Source: a virus
DNA: 64,000 nt
Direction: 5' to 3' (one strand)
Virus record (IMG/VR): IMGVR_UViG_3300021389_000008
Location: 31,967 to 95,966 of that record
The notes beneath the pieces are model-generated. The model saw nothing but the letters and a program-made list of their open reading frames with translations. It did no database searches and was not told the origin of the DNA. Position 1 is the stretch's first letter. Each line of letters starts with the position of its first letter. This document shows, piece by piece, positions 39,428-62,724 of the stretch. A program made the translations under genes and the position numbers.

Positions 39428-39664
39428 CTATCTCCCTAATCGAAAACCTTTTTGAGCAGCCCTCTTTGCGTTGATTTTTTTCCTACGCTTGATTGCCTGT
39501 TTTTGCTCATTCTTAATAGAACTAGGTTTTTCAAAGTGTTGCCTGTCTCTAACCTCTTGAACGATACCAGCACGTTCGCATGATTTCTTCCAACGTCTCA
39601 ACATCTTATCAAATGGTTCTTCGTTAGACTTTCGTTTATCTGTTCTTGGTGTTACACTTGGCAT
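39428..39664 (-). CDS. rpsU: Ribosomal protein bS21 (phage-encoded)
   Basis: EPFDKMLRRWKKSCERAGIV, then QEVRDRQHFEKPS, then a Lys/Arg-rich tail is plain bS21. At 78 aa it is slightly longer than E. coli S21 (71), with a six-residue DKRKSN insertion before EPFD and a longer tail. bS21 sits near the anti-Shine-Dalgarno on the 30S subunit, and viral copies are known in marine phages, including pelagiphages. The core is of the gamma/beta-proteobacterial type, not the alphaproteobacterial ALK-LKKKLQREG type. A structured leader and a late-like promoter precede it, so late expression is likely. Confidence 0.92.
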   Translation of the reverse strand: MPSVTPRTDKRKSNEEPFDKMLRRWKKSCERAGIVQEVRDRQHFEKPSSIKNEQKQAIKRRKKINAKRAAQKGFRLGR

Positions 39665-49574: not shown

Positions 49575-50147
49575 CTATTTAGTGAATCTTTCCATGTCTC
49601 TGAGAGTTTCTTTATCACTTTGCACTTCGTTATAGTTTGCATGTGCTTGCATAGTCACTTCGGGAATCTCAATATCGGGATATGACGTTGCAAGGTACCA
49701 AATAGCATTGGAGATTGACTGATATGATAATGAAGGCAATTCATGATTGATTAAACCTAAATTCATAGTAGTAATCTTACACTTCTTATCTGAATTGTAT
49801 GTGTAATTGTTAGACATGTGGTTGAGTGCCGCTTTTGCAGCTGCATACTTGTAACCTTTGGATATGTTTGGTTGTGAGGCACGTGAAGATATGTTGATGA
49901 TAATCTTTTTCATATCATGTCGATATGCATTGAAAGATTTTTCCAGCAAGTCACACTGGTCAAATGGAGCGCCGAAAGCATTGTTGATAAACACATCGTA
50001 TTCCTGCCATTCCCAATCTTCCCAAAGCATCAAATCTTCAATACGTGCTTCGTTAACGATATTCATCCCACCAGCAAATGGTGTAGAAGTAAAAGTGTCA
50101 CTAATGTTTCTTGCTAAACCTGTACTACCTGTTATTAGGATTTTCAT
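49575..50147 (-). CDS. Short-chain dehydrogenase/reductase-like (SDR) protein (190 aa)
   Basis: MKILITGSTGLARNISDTF is a Rossmann start. NISSRASQPNISKGYKYAAA plus K gives the Ser...Tyr-x3-Lys active site (YAAAK), followed by ALNHMSNN. It is shorter than classic SDRs (about 250). It overlaps the radical SAM gene by 23 bases, so the two products are very likely made together and act on one pathway. The substrate is unknown; sugar or nucleotide modification is possible. Confidence 0.8.
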   Translation of the reverse strand: MKILITGSTGLARNISDTFTSTPFAGGMNIVNEARIEDLMLWEDWEWQEYDVFINNAFGAPFDQCDLLEKSFNAYRHDMKKIIINISSRASQPNISKGYKYAAAKAALNHMSNNYTYNSDKKCKITTMNLGLINHELPSLSYQSISNAIWYLATSYPDIEIPEVTMQAHANYNEVQSDKETLRDMERFTK

Positions 50148-51057
50148 AATATTCCTTTACTAGGTCAAATGATTGTTTACCAAATAAACTCCCATCGACA
50201 CTACACTTGTTACAAGGGGACATCTCTCTGTTCCCTTTCATTAATCTCTTACGAATCTTTGTCATCGGTTTACTAAACCACACTTCATGTAAGGACATGG
50301 TCAATAGATTACCTACGACATGTTCTCTACCCCAATCGTTAGAGCAGAACAACACATCACCATTCCAGTCTACAAACATTTTATAGAAAGGGTAGTGACA
50401 TGGTTTACCTTTTAGATTCTCTACACTATCATCTTCGATACCAACCCAATCAACTACACCACTACGGTTGTTTAGTATCAGTCCGTGTTTCTCAAAGTCA
50501 CCCCAATGCATTCTGTATCTGTATTGGTCTTCATGCACTCTTGCTTCTGCCATCATGTAATCAAAACCTTCCATTTGATGAATACCATCATACAGATTGA
50601 TGTAGAGCAAATCCAATCCACTCTTGTACAAACCTGTGACATAATCTGAATCTAGTTTGTCGCCGTTAGTGTTACACTCTAGTGTTGCATAAGGTAAGTT
50701 AAACCTAAACACTCTTACGATTTCTATGAAGTCGGGGTTAAGTAAGTTCTCACCAAATCCACTAAAGGATATCTTACCGTTAAATCCATTGTCGGCAAGT
50801 TCTTCTGCAATCGTGGTTGCACCTTTAATGGTTAAGTGTAAGTTTCTATTGGGGAATACTTTAGGGTCATGTCTTGGGCAAAACACACATGTTCTGTTAC
50901 AGAGTTCTGTGGTGTTAATCTCTACAGTAAGAATAGAGTCAAGTTCTGTTAGAGTGCCTTTCTTTCTCTGCCAGTGTTTCTGTTCTTGTCCTCTACGATG
51001 TTCGAGAAAATCATATTGGTCAACTGCTGTAATTGGGATGTTTCTATTTTCGGACAC
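50125..51057 (-). CDS. Radical SAM protein with SPASM-like C-terminus (310 aa)
   Basis: INTTELCNRTCVFCPRHDPK holds the CX3CX2C cluster (Cys53, 57, 60) that binds the SAM [4Fe-4S]. FSGFGENLLNP is the conserved GGE-like segment. The C-terminal part has further cysteines (KPCHYPF, LFCSNDW, SPCNKC), as in SPASM auxiliary clusters. SPASM enzymes modify peptides or sugars. Together with the overlapping SDR it is likely a two-step modifying enzyme pair. The target is unknown. GAAAAT lies before the ATG; no clear ribosome site is visible. Confidence 0.88.
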   Translation of the reverse strand: MSENRNIPITAVDQYDFLEHRRGQEQKHWQRKKGTLTELDSILTVEINTTELCNRTCVFCPRHDPKVFPNRNLHLTIKGATTIAEELADNGFNGKISFSGFGENLLNPDFIEIVRVFRFNLPYATLECNTNGDKLDSDYVTGLYKSGLDLLYINLYDGIHQMEGFDYMMAEARVHEDQYRYRMHWGDFEKHGLILNNRSGVVDWVGIEDDSVENLKGKPCHYPFYKMFVDWNGDVLFCSNDWGREHVVGNLLTMSLHEVWFSKPMTKIRKRLMKGNREMSPCNKCSVDGSLFGKQSFDLVKEYYENPNNR

Positions 51058-53423: not shown

Positions 53424-54253
53424 AATGTAAAATCCTCTACATGGTTAAGTAACTCATTTAATCTATGAGATACGAGATAGTTAAAAACTTTGCCCTTAAC
53501 TATCGTGGTTTTGTCAAATTCGCTTAAGATAGATTCTTCAATGTGGTCGGGTATTAAATCCAAGTCAATTAAAGTTTGGTTTCTTAAGTAGTTACGATAG
53601 TATTTATCGTCCTTTTCAATGCTAATTCTGAGGTACTTTTCAAGTACTGGTTTTCTCAGTGGTGTTTGTCTGATACCCAAATCAAAGCAATCATCGTTAG
53701 ATAGTATATTAGGAATACCATCTGACTTGTCGCCTCTTAGAATATGTTCCTTCAAGAACATACTAGGGTCTTCACAACGAATCATTTTGTTTAGATTAGG
53801 TGACCACTGTTTCACATCGTAATGGTGTAACTGTTGAAAGTCTTTATCGCCTGATACAATGAGTACAGGTTCTGTTGCATGTTTAACTAATATTGCAATG
53901 ATGTCATCCGCTTCACACTTCTCTACGTACATATATCTGTAAGGAAAGTTATCTCTAATCTCTTCCTTTACTTTCTGTAGTGTTTCAAACAACATACCCC
54001 AATCCATATCAGATGCTTCACGTGTCTTCTTACGATTCGCTTTGTATAGTGGATAGAAGTCCTTTCTCCATGTATGGGAAGCATCCGTACAAAGAACAAT
54101 CTCTCCGTACTCACGTGCATATTTCTTTTGATAGTTTCGTACTGAGTTTAGAATCATATGTCTTAACATATCTTCTGAAACTTCTCCACCATTCATTTTG
54201 AGTTGTGCCATTAGACCAGCAATGATGGTCTGTGTAAAGTCTATAAGTATCAT
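53420..54253 (-). CDS. rnh: RNase H, T4-type (FEN-1 family 5' nuclease)
   Basis: MILIDFTQTIIAGLM gives the first Asp. TDASHTWRKDFYPLYKANRK, VEKCEADDIIAILV (E-ADD), SGDKDFQQLHHY (DKD) and RGDKSDGIPNIL are the further conserved blocks. T4 RNase H (305 aa) removes RNA primers from lagging-strand fragments. All metal-binding acidic residues seem kept. It overlaps the genes on both sides, so this is a coupled operon. Confidence 0.92.
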   Translation of the reverse strand: MILIDFTQTIIAGLMAQLKMNGGEVSEDMLRHMILNSVRNYQKKYAREYGEIVLCTDASHTWRKDFYPLYKANRKKTREASDMDWGMLFETLQKVKEEIRDNFPYRYMYVEKCEADDIIAILVKHATEPVLIVSGDKDFQQLHHYDVKQWSPNLNKMIRCEDPSMFLKEHILRGDKSDGIPNILSNDDCFDLGIRQTPLRKPVLEKYLRISIEKDDKYYRNYLRNQTLIDLDLIPDHIEESILSEFDKTTIVKGKVFNYLVSHRLNELLNHVEDFTL

Positions 54254-54960
54254 TTAATCACTTTTAATAATAATGTATTTTTGGTAATGAGCGGGTTTCC
54301 GTCTTTCAACTTAGACCTAGGGATTTCATCAATGAAACCTTTCGCAATTATATTACCACCTTTAACTAGCCTATCAAGTAACTTGCTATCTGTCAAGGTC
54401 TTTTCTGAACATTTATCAAAATCAATAATCTTAGAACCTTTGACTTTGAGACCATACCCTTCGAAGGCAGTAAACTTTTTACTTGAAGTGTTATAAGTGT
54501 ATAATCCTTTTGCTCTTATAATCTCTACTGGTTCGATGCTCTTGTAACTCTCCCACTGTTTTAAGTAAGGTAGTTTCTTAACCATCTGTTCGGGTGTTTG
54601 TGGTTTTCTTGGTTTACGAACTGGTTTGTATTCATCACAAAACTTTTGAATGTCTTCTTCAATTTTATCTAACCACTTAATAAACTTTTTCTTTTGAGCG
54701 GCGGTGAAGAAATCATACCCTTCATCTAATTGGTCATCACCTTCTTCATTCTTTAACTCTAAGGTCAACTCATTTGTAAGACCTTTCATGTAGGCGACAA
54801 CCTTTCCACTATACTCTAGTTGTTGCAAGTACTTGTACATACTGAATGAGTTCTTACCATTCTCTAGGTATTTGTCGATTTGAAATTCTACTTCATCAAA
54901 AGCATCTAGTGCTTTCATTCGCATTCTTTCTTGTACAGATATTTTATTTGTTTGTGTCAT
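54250..54960 (-). CDS. Conserved T4-like phage protein (236 aa)
   Basis: SVQERMRMKALDAFDEVEFQ, FTAAQKKKFIKWLDKIEEDI, VRKPRKPQTPEQMVKKLPYL and LKVKGSKIIDFDKCSEKTLT. This layout is common in marine T4-like phages, without a known function. The C-terminal half is a beta-rich domain. Its promoter -10 (TATACT) is only seven bases from the ATG, so a leaderless transcript is predicted. Confidence 0.65.
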   Translation of the reverse strand: MTQTNKISVQERMRMKALDAFDEVEFQIDKYLENGKNSFSMYKYLQQLEYSGKVVAYMKGLTNELTLELKNEEGDDQLDEGYDFFTAAQKKKFIKWLDKIEEDIQKFCDEYKPVRKPRKPQTPEQMVKKLPYLKQWESYKSIEPVEIIRAKGLYTYNTSSKKFTAFEGYGLKVKGSKIIDFDKCSEKTLTDSKLLDRLVKGGNIIAKGFIDEIPRSKLKDGNPLITKNTLLLKVIK

Positions 54961-55001: not shown

Positions 55002-56384
55002 TTAATCTGAAATATCTTTGCCTTTGTTTGTTAACATGAATTTTCTTGAACAATTAATCATAACATTTGCACGAGCCATAAAGTCTCGGTTTATGAGAAG
55101 GGGGATACTACCTCTTGAATCCAATGACACTTCAGTGTCTTTGTATACAGTGTTTAGAAACTCTATGTCCATTAACACTACTGGTCTTGTCTCAGCAGGT
55201 TTTTGTAATGTAACACTTCTATGTAATGGTTTAGTGTGTGTCTCACCATTTAGTTTCCATGTGACTTTCTTGTTTTTGATTTCCACATCTTCTGCATGTA
55301 AAGAACATACTGAAGTAGAGTTTCCTGTATCTAACTTACCAGTCATTTCTTGACCGTCAACTATAAAGGACTCTAACACTCCACACTGTTTAGGTTCCTT
55401 CCTCCACATGTCTCTGTCAAAGTAAAGTTTAAGAACCATTTTAGTAATGTCTTCTTCGATTGCTTCAGAGATTGCTTTACTACCAGCACTATGATTGACT
55501 TCAAGAATGTACGGTGTGTCCTTCTCTCTGTTCTTAGCAGGAATGTAATCCACTCCAACCCATTGACCGTTCACACCTTTTGCAGCCTTAAGACATTCTT
55601 GTTTTTCCAATTCAGTCATTTTAATCAACTCAACTGTTGCACCTTGTGATGCATTACTTCTGAAGTCGTCTGTAATCTTATTACGTTTCATTGCACCAAC
55701 AATTTCTTGGTTCACTATCACGCACCTTACGTCATAGTCGGACTCAATGTATTCTTGTAATAGGATATCAGTGTAAGGGTCAATCTTATAAATCAAACTA
55801 ATCTGCGATTGTAAACTTCTTTCAGTTTCAATTAACAGAACACCAACACCCTTAGAACCACTAAGTGTTTTAAGTACCATTGGAAATTTATTGTCTAGTG
55901 CTTCATGGGCAGCATCAACTGCCTCGGGTGTATCATTTGGAATCAGTACAGTCTTAGGTTGGTTCATACCAATCTCTTGTAGTCTTAGATAAGTTCTAAA
56001 CTTATCACAACACACTTCGATACACTCACGTGTGTTATTACATGGGATACCGTATCTCTCAATCTGCGATATCAAATCCATGTAGGAATCTTTCTTAGTC
56101 ACGTCTCCACGTATGAAAACGATTGTATCCTCGTCTAATTCAAAACCCTTGTCGTCACCTTCGTTATGAATTGTAATCTTACCATCGTCTTCTCTGATAA
56201 TGTAAGCACCATTGATTCTACAGTTGTAGCATTCTATTCCTAACTTCTCTGCCTTGGATACTAGTTTTGCAGAAGTGCCATCCCGAGCAATTTTCTTAGG
56301 ACGCTCAACAAGGACTACCAAACGATATGGTTTCTTATTATTATCCTCATCTCTTGCTTCTGTTATTTCGTTAAATGATTTCAT
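55002..56384 (-). CDS. RimK-like ATP-grasp ligase fused to RimB-like (retropepsin-fold) protease domain
   Basis: Start MKSFNEITEARDEDN at 56384 overlaps the upstream gene; a longer frame is possible. Residues about 120-340 are a RimK-type ATP-grasp: VLKTLSGSKGVGVLLIETE, RCVIVNQEIVGAMKR, DDFRSNASQGA and ILEVNHSAG. RimK adds glutamates to the C-terminus of ribosomal protein bS6. From about 345 comes a domain like RimB / putative ATP-dependent zinc protease: ESFIVDGQEMTGKLDTGNST (DTG active site), then ETRPVVLMDIEFL and DSRGSIPLLINRDFM. In bacteria rimK and rimB are usually separate genes. The fusion joins writer and possible trimmer in one chain. The true target in phage infection is unknown. 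Confidence 0.85.
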   Translation of the reverse strand: MKSFNEITEARDEDNNKKPYRLVVLVERPKKIARDGTSAKLVSKAEKLGIECYNCRINGAYIIREDDGKITIHNEGDDKGFELDEDTIVFIRGDVTKKDSYMDLISQIERYGIPCNNTRECIEVCCDKFRTYLRLQEIGMNQPKTVLIPNDTPEAVDAAHEALDNKFPMVLKTLSGSKGVGVLLIETERSLQSQISLIYKIDPYTDILLQEYIESDYDVRCVIVNQEIVGAMKRNKITDDFRSNASQGATVELIKMTELEKQECLKAAKGVNGQWVGVDYIPAKNREKDTPYILEVNHSAGSKAISEAIEEDITKMVLKLYFDRDMWRKEPKQCGVLESFIVDGQEMTGKLDTGNSTSVCSLHAEDVEIKNKKVTWKLNGETHTKPLHRSVTLQKPAETRPVVLMDIEFLNTVYKDTEVSLDSRGSIPLLINRDFMARANVMINCSRKFMLTNKGKDISD

Positions 56385-56718
56385 CTTTTTCTCTATGTAA
56401 ATCCACAAAGTGTTCTGCATCAATCACTACTAATGGTTTACTTCTATTTCTTTTTATGACCACTAGTGGTTCATACCCTTTACAATTTTCTGAAGCTTGT
56501 TCATATGCTTTCCATACGTTTACTGCTTCTTGGTTCTTACACTCAATACTGTATGGGAACTTCTCTCGTGACTCACGTCCCATTATAATATCTTCCCCTT
56601 GTGAACCCATAGGTCTAGACTCTATATCTTCTTCATGAAGGTCTAGTGTATCCACCATTAACTTTGCAAACCACTGTTGTAGTTTTCTTCCTTTAGCTTT
56701 TGCTGATGATGTCTTCAT
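56371..56718 (-). CDS. Small PD-(D/E)XK nuclease (115 aa)
   Basis: SSAKAKGRKLQQWFAKLMVD at the start, IESRPMGSQGEDIIMGRESR, then FPYSIECKNQEAVNVWKAYE is the G-x-D...ECK active-site pattern of resolvase-like or VRR-type phage nucleases. PLVVIKRNRSKPLVVIDAEH completes the core. Likely task: DNA repair or branched-DNA processing. Overlaps IscA-like gene by 26 bases and RimK-like gene by 14. Confidence 0.78.
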   Translation of the reverse strand: MKTSSAKAKGRKLQQWFAKLMVDTLDLHEEDIESRPMGSQGEDIIMGRESREKFPYSIECKNQEAVNVWKAYEQASENCKGYEPLVVIKRNRSKPLVVIDAEHFVDLHREKDEII

Positions 56719-57027: not shown

Positions 57028-57651
57028 TTAGGCTATCTCGCTCTTATTCGCCTTAATAATTTCACTCATGTTTTTATGATGTAATGATTCATAAGGAATA
57101 TGAATGTCTTGGTCTTCGGGAACGTATAAGAAATTAATCTCTGACTTGTTACAAGTATTGATTGCATCCTCAATAGTTTCAACTAATGGTTCACCACCTA
57201 AGTTAAATGAAGTGTTAAAGATAATTGGTACACCAGTCGCTTCATACATCTTCTCAATAAGGTCATAGTAGTTCTTGTTCTGTTCACGTGTAACAGTTTG
57301 AATTCTACATGTACCATCTGCATGTACTAGTGTTGGAATGTCTTTGTATGCTTTGTCTTTTGCTTTGATAGCGAATGACATCCATGGGGATTCCTGTAAT
57401 TGCAACATCTCAAAATACTCTTCAGCATGTTCTAACATGATGCTTCCAGCGAAAGGTCGATAGTACTCACGCCTCTTGACGTTGTTGACGATTTGTTTTG
57501 CTTCGGGATGTCTAGGGTCAAATAGAATAGACCTGTTGCCTAGAGCACGTGGGCCCCATTCTGATTCACCTTGGAAGATGGCGACAATTTGTGCCTTGCC
57601 GACTATAAGGTCGATGACCTCATCTAAATCTCTAATAATTGCTGTCTTCAT
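57028..57651 (-). CDS. Carbamoyltransferase, C-terminal part (NodU/CmcH family, 207 aa)
   Basis: IFQGESEWGPRALGNRSILF, then DPRHPEAKQIVNN, then KRREYYRPFAGSIMLE and VPIIFNTSFNLGGEPLVETI are the hallmark blocks of the carbamoyltransferase C-terminal domain. The N-terminal domain is in a separate gene directly upstream. It begins at ATG 57651 with a GAGGAT ribosome site, three bases past the N-part stop, and lies in a different frame. This therefore looks like a real two-gene enzyme rather than a nonsense change. Confidence 0.9.
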   Translation of the reverse strand: MKTAIIRDLDEVIDLIVGKAQIVAIFQGESEWGPRALGNRSILFDPRHPEAKQIVNNVKRREYYRPFAGSIMLEHAEEYFEMLQLQESPWMSFAIKAKDKAYKDIPTLVHADGTCRIQTVTREQNKNYYDLIEKMYEATGVPIIFNTSFNLGGEPLVETIEDAINTCNKSEINFLYVPEDQDIHIPYESLHHKNMSEIIKANKSEIA

Positions 57652-57653
57652 AA

Positions 57654-58937
57654 TTAATCCTCTATTACTGTTTCTAATTCGGCAGTAGCATCGCCCAATC
57701 CGTCATTTGTTACTAATCCTAACTTCTCGTGTCTCAAGTGTTCTTCTAACCACAGAGCAGCACCTGTTGCTGTACCACCATCATGTGGGATAGGGTCGAC
57801 AAAGATTTGATAGTCGGGATACTTTTCTAAGTACTTGTAATTGTTTGTACAGTTTAAAGAATACCCACCACTTAACACTATGTTCTTACACTTTGGGAAC
57901 ATCTCTATTGCTTTGTCAATTAGTTTACATGACTCCGTAAACGAAGTCTGTTCAACTAGTTGTGCAACTGAATATTTGTTGTGTACGTTAAACGTAGCAT
58001 CTGTTGGTGAGTATGATGCCATACCCATAACTTTACCAGCAGCACGTCCTTCTTCATCTGTTCCAAGAGCGGCACTGATATTACTAAAGTTCATACCACT
58101 AGATGGTTTAGATGTGAGAACATACTCTACTGCAGATGAATTTAAATTATCATCCTTCTTATTGATTGTCTTATCTTCTATAGTCCAAGTAGACTGTGAC
58201 ATCTCGTTTGGGAAATAGTGTGTTTGCAAATCATCCATCATTCTAATGTTAGATAATTTCTGCCATTTAAGTTCACCCATTCTTGATGGGTCACTATAAT
58301 AAATTGATTCGATTTCTTGATAGCCTGGATATTCAGAATACAATGGTTGACCACCACCGCCATCCCAAACTATAGTGATAGCACCTTTACCTTTGTCAAA
58401 GAAAGGTGAAAGAGCATATCCATTATATGCATGATATAGATGATGATGTTCTCTTACAAAGTAACAAGCACGATTATCAAGTTGATGTCCACGAATTTGG
58501 TCTATGACATCATCATCTGCATTTTCGTTTTCATGTCTAAAGTCAATTGCTTTTTTACCCCACTTCTCTTGCAACTCTTCTAGACGTGATGTACCCAATG
58601 GGGAATTTTGTAAGTCTTGCAAAAATTCTCTTGTCTTCAATCTATCTAATTGAATAGAGTGTTTGCCGGAAGGGTGTTTTTTATCGGGGGTGATTGTAAC
58701 AGTACACTGTCGTCTATCAAAAGAGGCGAATATAATTTCATCCCAGTCATGGACATCTCCAGCACGAACATCTATACTATCGTACAGACACGTCTCATCA
58801 TTGTCGGGGTCGAAATCGGGACACCAGTACTTATCTCTGCGGTATCTTGCCTCATCAAACGAACCAGTTACCTTAGGCCCTTCCACGGTACCAACAGCGG
58901 CATCGTGTGAAATATTAATTCCAAGTATTTTTTTCAT
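57654..58937 (-). CDS. Carbamoyltransferase, N-terminal part (NodU/CmcH family, 427 aa)
   Basis: MKKILGINISHDAAVGTVEG is the classic start with the conserved HDA. HHLYHAYNGYALSPF gives the metal-binding HHL-HA. ITIVWDGGGGQPLYSEYP, NISAALGTDEEGRAAGKVMG and IVLSGGYSLNCTNN follow, ending in DPIPHDGGTATGAALWL. These enzymes use carbamoyl phosphate to carbamoylate a hydroxyl, often on a sugar or antibiotic. Phage ones may modify surface sugars or nucleotides. The C-terminal domain is the next gene. Together they give 634 aa, about the normal full length. Confidence 0.9.
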   Translation of the reverse strand: MKKILGINISHDAAVGTVEGPKVTGSFDEARYRRDKYWCPDFDPDNDETCLYDSIDVRAGDVHDWDEIIFASFDRRQCTVTITPDKKHPSGKHSIQLDRLKTREFLQDLQNSPLGTSRLEELQEKWGKKAIDFRHENENADDDVIDQIRGHQLDNRACYFVREHHHLYHAYNGYALSPFFDKGKGAITIVWDGGGGQPLYSEYPGYQEIESIYYSDPSRMGELKWQKLSNIRMMDDLQTHYFPNEMSQSTWTIEDKTINKKDDNLNSSAVEYVLTSKPSSGMNFSNISAALGTDEEGRAAGKVMGMASYSPTDATFNVHNKYSVAQLVEQTSFTESCKLIDKAIEMFPKCKNIVLSGGYSLNCTNNYKYLEKYPDYQIFVDPIPHDGGTATGAALWLEEHLRHEKLGLVTNDGLGDATAELETVIED

Positions 58938-59558: not shown

Positions 59559-60326
59559 TTATCTCCAGTCTGGGCCAACACCCCATACTACTAGGGAACT
59601 ACGTGAACCTCTAGTAACAGGTGTAACACAATGTCTAAGGAATGATGGGAAGAATATTACTGTTCCCTTTTGTCTCATTGCCTCTGCCATGTGTGGGTCT
59701 TCTACCATACGAGCATCATCACCAACTAACAAGTCCCCACCTTCATATTCACTAGGGTCTGTTAACTGAATACTTGCACTCAGTTTGCGGTCATGACGTG
59801 TACCCATACCACCTAGGTATGAATCAATGTGCCAGTTATAGTGTTGGTCAGCACCACCTTCGACATAATCGTAACGAGTGTACTGTGGTATTTCAATGTT
59901 TTCCAAATCAAATCCAAAGGTATACATGTTTGTCATTTTCATTTGGTGTAACACTTCATTAAACATTTGATTAGAATAATCACATGATACATCCAACCAA
60001 CCAGTTGTACAGTTTCTTATTTCTTCGTTGATACGTCCTCGTTCTTCTTCTCCTTGTTGGTATCCGACACTTCCTTGTCCGATTGATGGATGCTTCTCCA
60101 TGTACGAAACAAGTTCATCACACCACTCTGGCGAAAAAACATTATTAATGATTTCGATATCTCTAACTCTGGCGGGTGGTTGATTTGGTCTTTCTTCTTC
60201 TGCCACTTGTCTAGTTGACTCAACTTCATTAACAATCTTGGGTTCTTGATATTGTGTCGATTGCGGTTCTTCATTTTGTGAACCTCCAATAGATACAACG
60301 TTAGGGTTTGGTATATTAAATCTCAT
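59559..60326 (-). CDS. 2-oxoglutarate/Fe(II) oxygenase, prolyl hydroxylase-like (255 aa)
   Basis: YDYVEGGADQHYNWHIDSYL gives the H-x-D metal pair (HID). Later GTVIFFPSFLRHCVTPVTRG, then SRSSLVVWGVGP gives the third His and the Arg that binds 2-oxoglutarate. LTDPSEYEGGDLLVG is the usual core strand. A 75-residue Pro/Gln/Glu-rich N-terminal extension is present. Common in marine T4-like phages. The substrate (protein, nucleotide or sugar) is unknown; some family members hydroxylate ribosomal proteins. Confidence 0.88.
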   Translation of the reverse strand: MRFNIPNPNVVSIGGSQNEEPQSTQYQEPKIVNEVESTRQVAEEERPNQPPARVRDIEIINNVFSPEWCDELVSYMEKHPSIGQGSVGYQQGEEERGRINEEIRNCTTGWLDVSCDYSNQMFNEVLHQMKMTNMYTFGFDLENIEIPQYTRYDYVEGGADQHYNWHIDSYLGGMGTRHDRKLSASIQLTDPSEYEGGDLLVGDDARMVEDPHMAEAMRQKGTVIFFPSFLRHCVTPVTRGSRSSLVVWGVGPDWR

Positions 60327-61239: not shown

Positions 61240-62724
61240 TTACTTCTCCAGTTTAAATTGTTCGCAATATTCGAGGAATGCTTTTGCACTCATGTTTGAT
61301 TTTTGTCTGTTAACACTTCGGGAACACACTACAAGGTTAGAGTATTCAGTCTTACCACCTTGCGACTTTGCAACATAGTGGTCACCCTCTGCATTATCTA
61401 TGTCAAGAGGCAGACCCGTGTAATAATCAACACCACCCTGTTCCTCTAGTTTCTTGATTATCCACTCCTTTGGAAAAGAAGCATCATCGGTAAAGGTCAC
61501 CCCATACTCAACAGGGTCGGACTTATCAAGAATAGATTTAATCGTCATGATTGCATTCTTGTTGTAACCACCAAAGAGTTCCAGTGCCGGTGGCATAGGA
61601 TTGCCGTTGTAGGTCGTTTCGTCTCTGAAGAGTGCTTTGTCTTTGTCACTCCATTCTTCCATGACACTAATAAACTTATTTGCAAAGACGGACTTGGTGA
61701 CACTTGCCTTTGAATTTAATCTCCCAGTAATGTCCATGTAATACAACGCCATCATGTGAGTAAACATTGCAGTCAAACGATTTTTCTTTGCACTGGGTAC
61801 ACTCTGTACCAGTTCCTTGGTAACAGACAATAACTTGTCCATGAACTTCTTATCCGTAAACTTCTCCGCATAAGCACCCGTACCCGTAGTCACTTCTTTG
61901 ACCCACTTAGAGTGTGCTTGTTGCGAGATGCCATCCGTCCAGTCATGTGACGAATAAGATAGGTATGCAAGTTGCGAGACCCACTGGTCTACTTCCATTC
62001 TTGCATTGAGTTTAAAGTTCTTGGAGAAATGAGATAACGTCTCCTTACCTTTAGAGTCGATTGCACGTGTGAACAAGGGATTAAACTTGAACGTCTGTGG
62101 CAACCCCTTAGGCGTAGTCCTAGAGGTATCCCTTACGTACTCGGGGAACTCACCTAGGTATGCATTACGCTTCTCTTGTGGTTTCATATCGTTTGTATTG
62201 TTCAATACATCAACAAACATCTCTGAGATTTGCTCTTTCTTGAGATTCATATACCACACAGCGTCAACTGAGTGGTTTAATATGAACTGTTGCATGTCAA
62301 CGTCTAACTGATTAAAGTATAGACCACCCAACTTCACACCATTGATTGTTAAATTCGGTGCAAGTGGGAATTCGTTATTGGAAAAGTCTAGTAGACTGGA
62401 GAAACGCTGTTGGCCATCCATCAATTCAAGTGCGATGACCTTACCATCCTCATCAAACTTGACAAGAATGTGTATTTGAGGAATCCTCTTAAAGGAATCC
62501 TCTAAAACAGTTTGGAGTATACCCTGCTTGAAGGGTATTGTTGCAACCCTTTCCCTCTGATAGGAACGGTTACCTAAAACAAACAGAGAACTGACGTAGG
62601 TAAAACCAAACGAAACCTCTATTTCGCCTTTTGCAGAAAAGGCACTCCCCTCTTTTTGTTGGTTTAGGGATTCCAAGGTCGATTTTAAAGTATCGAGACC
62701 ATCACTTGTACTAATATAAGACAT
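61240..62724 (-). CDS. DUF262 protein with C-terminal HNH nuclease (GmrSD-like, 494 aa)
   Basis: NRSYQRERVATIPFKQGILQ near residue 52, then IALELMDGQQRFSSLLDFSN, gives the DGQQR motif of DUF262/GmrS. The middle is helical. The C-terminal 70 residues (YYTGLPLDIDNAEGDHYVAK, then SQGGKTEYSNLVVCSRSVNR, then QKSNMS) are an HNH domain with the DH...GG...N...N--K pattern. GmrSD-type enzymes cut modified phage DNA. Here a phage carries one, so it may attack rival phages, host DNA, or act in homing. A sigma70-type promoter precedes it. Confidence 0.85.
   Translation of the reverse strand: MSYISTSDGLDTLKSTLESLNQQKEGSAFSAKGEIEVSFGFTYVSSLFVLGNRSYQRERVATIPFKQGILQTVLEDSFKRIPQIHILVKFDEDGKVIALELMDGQQRFSSLLDFSNNEFPLAPNLTINGVKLGGLYFNQLDVDMQQFILNHSVDAVWYMNLKKEQISEMFVDVLNNTNDMKPQEKRNAYLGEFPEYVRDTSRTTPKGLPQTFKFNPLFTRAIDSKGKETLSHFSKNFKLNARMEVDQWVSQLAYLSYSSHDWTDGISQQAHSKWVKEVTTGTGAYAEKFTDKKFMDKLLSVTKELVQSVPSAKKNRLTAMFTHMMALYYMDITGRLNSKASVTKSVFANKFISVMEEWSDKDKALFRDETTYNGNPMPPALELFGGYNKNAIMTIKSILDKSDPVEYGVTFTDDASFPKEWIIKKLEEQGGVDYYTGLPLDIDNAEGDHYVAKSQGGKTEYSNLVVCSRSVNRQKSNMSAKAFLEYCEQFKLEK

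What the first reader, a model, noticed from the sequence alone, without database searches (positions are those of the whole stretch)
55002..56384. RimK ATP-grasp fused to a RimB-like protease domain in a phage that also carries bS21
The N-terminal two-thirds has RimK blocks (GAMKR, FRSN, LEVN-S-G). The rest has the DTG-TS and TRPV..SLDSRGSIPLLI pattern of the RimB / ATP-dependent zinc protease family. In bacteria, RimK adds glutamates to ribosomal protein bS6 and RimB acts on that tail, as separate genes. A single-chain writer/trimmer in a phage that also supplies its own bS21, and perhaps a prolyl-hydroxylase-like 2OG oxygenase (59559-60326), suggests a system to reset the host ribosome. Domain calls rest on sequence patterns; the ribosomal target is inference.
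Basis: partly seen in the sequence, partly recalled or inferred. Interest (0 to 1): 0.82.

Follow-up and report, generated by a model that had tools for sequence, protein, structure and literature searches.

The report
Phage RimK–RimB glutamate-tail enzyme fusion
A widespread marine phage gene fuses, in one protein, an enzyme that looks able to add glutamates to a protein tail and a protease that looks able to cut them off; bacteria have a similar hybrid in the opposite order, and what the phage enzyme acts on (perhaps the host ribosome) is not yet known.

Summary
Residues 65-318 are a RimK-family ligase (TIGR00768 above its cut-off). Residues 330-450 are a RimB/Rlo retropepsin-type protease domain (PF05618; profile match to solved Rlo proteases; hhalign 98.6% to bacterial RimB). 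AlphaFold2 on 61 relatives gives pLDDT 84.6. 133 distinct full-length phage proteins were recovered, all with the catalytic DTG. Both domains are under the same purifying selection (dN/dS 0.27 and 0.28).

Two parts of the reading need changing. RimB and RimK are not always separate in bacteria: a RimB-RimK hybrid was published in 2025. The phage order is the reverse, RimK then RimB, in one clade apart from bacterial RimK and RimBK. The bS21 link is lineage background: pelagic T4-like phages without the fusion carry bS21 too.

Best explanation: a self-contained glutamate-tail writer/trimmer, probably aimed at a host protein, with bS6 the leading but untested candidate. Differences at the protease site (DTGN, shortened flap) leave room for another substrate or a regulatory C-domain. 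New variant of a known kind.

The parts
55002..56384 (-). RimK-RimB fusion gene ('RimKB' order), 460 aa
   Evidence: ORF and translation; 133 distinct full-length phage homologues; AlphaFold2 pLDDT 84.6
55431..56192 (-). RimK-family ATP-grasp ligase region (residues 65-318), with Lys128, Lys172, Arg234, Arg242, Asp279, Glu295 and Asn297 invariant in 61 of 61
   Evidence: TIGR00768 153.5 bits; PF08443; Foldseek P. syringae RimK 7qys TM 0.86; conservation
55032..55397 (-). RimB/Rlo-type retropepsin domain (residues 330-451), DTGN at residues 352-355
   Evidence: PF05618 E 9e-6; PDB 9g59/9g58/2pma; hhalign 98.6%; DTGN invariant 61 of 61
39428..39664 (-). bS21, 15 kb away; lineage trait, not shown to be linked to the fusion
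   Evidence: PF01165 50.8 bits; survey
56371..56718 (-). RusA-like/PDDEXK gene just upstream, overlapping the fusion's start; conserved neighbour in the window-type clade
   Evidence: phrog_244; neighbourhood
54250..54960 (-). Conserved downstream neighbour of unknown function (phrog_11903)
   Evidence: present at +1 in 45 loci

Best explanation
The gene makes one polypeptide that can both write and trim a glutamate tail. The N-terminal ATP-grasp domain ligates L-glutamate to the C-terminus of an acceptor. The C-terminal domain pairs with that of a second molecule to form a retropepsin dimer that cuts the poly-glutamate again and, as RimB does, may stimulate the ligase. Fusion keeps writer and trimmer in 1:1 ratio without host RimA or RimB. 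The most likely acceptor is a host protein, first of all ribosomal protein bS6 beside bS18 and bS21 on the 30S platform, so that the phage sets the tail state of the ribosome during infection. Shown here: both domains, their intact catalytic residues, joint conservation and their order. Inferred from families: glutamate chemistry and dimeric protease. Speculative: bS6 as the target.
For: RimK subfamily model above its cut-off. The best fold matches are RimK of Pseudomonas and E. coli, including RimK solved with RpsF (5zk6). ATP/Mg-site and FRSN residues are invariant in 61 of 61. The retropepsin DTG is invariant in 133 of 133. The basic residues that contact poly-Glu in RloA and are shared with RimB (K46, R114, R137 in PMC12239564) map by position onto K350 (over 90% conserved), R400 and R424 (both invariant). 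Purifying selection is equal on the two domains, dN/dS 0.27 and 0.28 over 501 pairs. In DTGN-lineage loci found with the C-domain alone, the domain was always joined to RimK or cut by a contig end, 30 of 30 of the most distant loci. RimB of Pseudomonas removes poly-Glu from RpsF and stimulates RimK (PMC11957791). No phage protein read in this 96 kb record ends in Glu-Glu or carries 5 or more consecutive Glu, and only 4 of 45 orthologues of one neighbour carry a run of 5; the phages encode no bS6. This points mildly to a host acceptor. In one clade the gene sits directly downstream of the translational repressor RegA.
Against: No biochemical test exists for a phage member. The bacterial RimBK hybrid cleaved poly-Glu but showed no glutamylation of RpsF (PMC11957791). 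The phage protein is far below the E. coli RimK equivalog cut-off (87 against 331 bits). The residue after DTG is Asn, not Ala, and the flap segment carrying the RimB 'KSSNG' is shortened or missing, so the protease substrate may differ. bS21 co-occurrence is explained by lineage. The hosts' bS6 tails could not be examined.
Confidence: 0.42

Rival explanations
1. The enzyme modifies a phage protein or virion component rather than a host protein.
For: The YerA41 homologue (YerA41_066) is annotated as a structural protein, and 63 proteins were found in purified YerA41 particles (PMC7354516), so it may travel in the virion. The gene lies in a replication-gene cluster in one clade.
Against: No conserved neighbour ends in a Glu tail, and no phage protein read in this record carries 5 or more Glu in a row. 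Many YerA41 particle proteins are enzymes thought to be injected (PMC7354516). The gene context differs between clades.
Confidence: 0.18
2. It makes and turns over free poly-alpha-glutamate or a small-molecule glutamate conjugate rather than modifying a protein.
For: RimK makes free poly-alpha-Glu in vitro (title of Kino 2011 as cited in PMC12239564; PMC11957791). The NCBIfam equivalogs matched include tetrahydromethanopterin and F420 glutamate ligases.
Against: None of these equivalog cut-offs is met. The fused RimB-type protease argues for a peptide product.
Confidence: 0.2
3. The C-terminal domain is mainly a dimerisation or regulatory domain that stimulates the ligase, with little protease activity.
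For: DTGN instead of DTGA and a shortened flap. Melnitz phages have the RimK part without the C-domain and nest inside the fusion clade, so the domain can be lost.
Against: Asp, Thr and Gly of the active site are invariant in 133 of 133, and selection equals that on the ligase.
Confidence: 0.13
4. An ATP-grasp amidoligase for hypermodified phage DNA or another non-protein target.
For: YerA41 DNA resists sequencing and is thought to be modified (PMC7354516).
Against: The marine relatives belong to different T4-like clades with no shared DNA-modification cassette next to the gene, and a poly-Glu protease domain has no role there.
Confidence: 0.03

Closest known systems
Bacterial RimBK hybrid (Desulfotalea psychrophila DP2392; Flavobacteriales, Rhodobacterales; PMC11957791)
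   Same: One chain with a RimB-type retropepsin and a RimK-type ligase, about 460 aa.
   Different: Order RimB then RimK, opposite to the phage; DSGA in the Bacteroidota ones against DTGN; separate RimK clade. Not reported from phages in the papers I could search.
RimK and RimB of Pseudomonas (RimABK system)
   Same: RimK fold and catalytic residues; RimB fold, DTG and the basic poly-Glu contacts.
   Different: Separate genes with RimA and cyclic-di-GMP control; the phage has no RimA next to it, a shorter flap and DTGN.
RloA retropepsins (PDB 9g58, 9g59)
   Same: Closest solved relatives of the C-domain by profile; they cleave Glu-rich sequence (PMC12239564).
   Different: Secreted stand-alone proteins with long flaps; the phage domain has no signal peptide of its own because it is fused behind RimK.
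RimK-only phage genes (S-CAM8, Melnitz)
   Same: Phage-borne RimK-type ligases; Melnitz belongs to the same clade.
   Different: No retropepsin domain; S-CAM8 lies outside the clade on a long branch of unsure place.

Membership tests
RimK family alpha-L-glutamate ligases (TIGR00768) | Score above the subfamily cut-off | tested here: met
   153.5 bits against 143.4
RimK family alpha-L-glutamate ligases (TIGR00768) | ATP-grasp catalytic residues (Lys128, Lys172, Arg234, Arg242, Asp279, Glu295, Asn297) | tested here: met
   invariant in 61 of 61; roles assigned from general knowledge of the ATP-grasp fold
30S protein S6 glutamate ligase (E. coli RimK equivalog, NF007764) | Score above the equivalog cut-off | tested here: not met
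   87.2 against 331 bits
30S protein S6 glutamate ligase (E. coli RimK equivalog, NF007764) | Adds glutamate to bS6 | not testable with these tools
   needs an enzyme assay
RimB/Rlo retropepsins (PF05618) | Homology over the whole domain | tested here: met
   hhalign 98.6%, E 5e-16; PDB 9g59 E 2.6e-9; 47 of 61 members match PF05618; the window copy itself is just under the gathering score, 26.0 against 27
RimB/Rlo retropepsins (PF05618) | DTG catalytic motif | tested here: met
   133 of 133 distinct phage proteins
RimB/Rlo retropepsins (PF05618) | Ala after DTG, and the KSSNG flap segment | tested here: not met
   Asn instead, and the segment shortened or missing
RimB/Rlo retropepsins (PF05618) | Basic residues contacting poly-Glu (K46, R114, R137 of RloA) | tested here: met
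   K350, R400, R424 by alignment position; the mapping is inferred from sequence spacing
Bacterial RimBK hybrid | RimB N-terminal, RimK C-terminal | tested here: not met
   reversed in all 133 phage proteins; 14 of 14 Bacteroidota hybrids keep the B-K order

The most novel reading that the evidence does not exclude
Marine T4-like phages evolved, independently of bacteria, a one-chain writer and trimmer of ribosomal glutamate tails. It re-marks host ribosomes (bS6) during infection, in a lineage that also replaces the neighbouring platform protein bS21, and so acts as a phage-specific ribosome reprogramming system.
Probability: 0.25. Interest if true: 0.88.

Novelty: new variant of a known kind. 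Interest (0 to 1): 0.62.

Why it matters
If the enzyme works on ribosomes, some of the most abundant marine phages carry their own system to re-mark host ribosomes, in a lineage that also supplies its own bS21. Viral bS21 made E. coli ribosomes nearly inactive and its authors suggested that further viral or host factors may be needed (PMC6375957); this gene is one candidate for such a factor. Even if the target is something else, a phage-only, reversed RimK-retropepsin fusion with both active sites under selection is a ready test of what such hybrids do, which was left open for the bacterial RimBK. It is testable in a cultured pair: Pelagibacter HTCC1062 and phage Mosig.

Tried and rejected
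Specific bS21 link: rejected as evidence. In the regA-adjacent clade 10 of 10 fusion loci with enough upstream sequence have bS21 3.7-6 kb upstream, but 4 fusion-less sister loci with enough upstream sequence also have it, and HTVC008M has bS21 without the fusion.

Phage-encoded substrate: searched C-termini of conserved neighbours and poly-Glu runs in the ORFs of the record; none convincing.

Phage bS6: none in 8 records.

Bacterial K-B order fusions: none in 148 Bacteroidota genomes apart from one misbinned phage contig; the two genome-collection hits are both phage contigs by gene content. Other phyla were not surveyed this way.

First AlphaFold2 run on 11 close relatives was poor (pLDDT 50.7) and was discarded for the 61-sequence run. 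YerA41 protein as a query found no IMG/VR relatives. Host bS6 tails could not be looked up: no handle to Pelagibacter genomes.

Full report
What is there. The gene lies on the minus strand, 56384 to 55002, and encodes 460 residues; an in-frame TTG allows a longer ORF from 56423, but the closest relatives share the MKSF start. The record is a 95,966-base virus contig of which the window is positions 31,967-95,966. Window genes include a gp32-type ssDNA-binding protein and a T4 RNase H, so this is a T4-like phage.

RimK part. PF08443 E 7e-32; TIGR00768 153.5 bits, above its cut-off of 143.4. The E. coli S6-ligase equivalog is matched far below cut-off (87 against 331). AlphaFold2 on 61 relatives gave mean pLDDT 84.6, and Foldseek's best hits are RimK of P. 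syringae, P. aeruginosa and E. coli, TM 0.81-0.87 by target length.

RimB part. The C-terminal piece of the window protein alone matches PF05618 at E 9e-6, one bit under the gathering score; 11 of 12 C-domains match at E<=0.01, and 47 of 61 full-length relatives at E<=0.001. The C-domain profile finds the solved Rlo proteases 9g59 and 9g58, and 2pma, and hhalign against bacterial RimB gives 98.6% probability. Sequence differences from RimB: Asn instead of Ala after DTG, and the flap segment with KSSNG shortened or missing. The basic residues that contact poly-Glu in RloA and are shared with RimB (PMC12239564) correspond by position to K350, R400 and R424; the mapping is mine, by alignment and spacing.

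How widespread and how conserved. Among fetched loci there are 133 distinct full-length phage proteins, all with DTGN, falling into 9 groups at 60% identity. Cultured phages with the full fusion: Pelagibacter phage Mosig (42% identity), Yersinia phages YerA41 and GN1 (33%). When the scan is made with the C-domain alone, the 30 most distant loci are all RimK fusions or are cut by a contig end. Median dN/dS is 0.27 for the RimK part and 0.28 for the RimB part over 501 unsaturated pairs.

Relation to bacteria. [quoted passage not shown] Its RimB part cleaves poly-Glu; glutamylation of RpsF by the hybrid was not seen. In 248 Bacteroidota genomes 72 carry PF05618; the 14 hybrids I read are all RimB(DSGA)-RimK, and many of the others have rimB followed by a separate rimK. 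The phage order is the reverse. In the RimK tree the phage fusions plus Melnitz RimK form one clade (100/100), apart from bacterial RimK and RimBK (98/100). Melnitz, which lacks the protease domain, sits inside, between YerA41 and the rest, so loss of the domain there is the simplest reading; long branches make its exact place less sure.

Genomic context. Two settings recur. In Mosig-type phages: clamp, clamp loader, RegA, fusion, small protein, ferredoxin, DNA polymerase. In window-type phages: split carbamoyltransferase, IscA-like protein, RusA-like protein, fusion, unknown protein, RNase H. In sister phages without the fusion RegA is usually followed directly by the small protein and DNA polymerase, so the fusion is an optional insert in a core replication cluster.

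bS21. Found in all five IMG/VR records over 60 kb carrying the fusion, and in Mosig and Melnitz, not in YerA41. In Mosig-type loci with at least 6.5 kb upstream, 10 of 10 have it 3.7-6 kb upstream. But four fusion-less sister loci with enough upstream sequence also have it, HTVC008M has bS21 without the fusion, and a survey calls bS21, peptide deformylase and Asp/Asn hydroxylase core to all pelagimyophages (PMC7029224). So co-occurrence is background and says nothing specific about function. bS6 and bS21 do lie together with bS18 on the 30S platform (PMC9976891 abstract), which keeps the idea physically sensible.

Acceptor. No bS6 in the phages. No neighbour has a conserved Glu tail, and no protein read in this record carries 5 or more consecutive Glu or ends in Glu-Glu. 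This argues mildly for a host acceptor.

Verdict. Real, conserved and widespread; a reversed, phage-specific form of a hybrid known from bacteria; both active sites kept. The writer-and-trimmer reading follows from family knowledge; the ribosomal target is inference.

Noticed in passing
window 57028-57651 and 57654-58937, minus: NodU/CmcH-type carbamoyltransferase split into two adjacent genes (N and C domains); the split is conserved in about 40 related loci.
   Followed up: partly
window 61240-62724, minus: Protein with an HNH_4 domain and a weak GmrSD_N (DUF262-like) match, resembling a type IV restriction-like protein in a phage.
   Followed up: no
L155 978-1589 minus (record G000:C1, outside the window): ORF that looks like a peptide deformylase by its GLSANQ motif; read by eye only.
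   Followed up: no
L038 13351-13665 and relatives: Small protein of about 104 aa (STGED-IAKV...) between RegA or the fusion and DNA polymerase in pelagic T4-like phages; no Pfam match. Looks LSm-like by eye.
   Followed up: no
L040 (Melnitz MZ577097.1, 82-1131): RimK gene of the same clade without the protease domain, directly after RegA: apparent domain loss.
   Followed up: partly
L039 11953-13374 (YerA41_066): Fusion homologue annotated 'structural protein' in a phage whose particle proteome was measured (PMC7354516); possibly packaged.
   Followed up: partly
L121 (JAAXIF010000075.1) and L122 (PBQF01000074.1): Contigs filed under Sphingobacteriales and Parcubacteria MAGs are phage contigs by gene content: misbinning.
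   Followed up: yes
window 50125-51057 and 49575-50147, minus: Radical SAM/SPASM protein followed by an SDR-like protein, conserved downstream of the fusion in about 40 loci.
   Followed up: no
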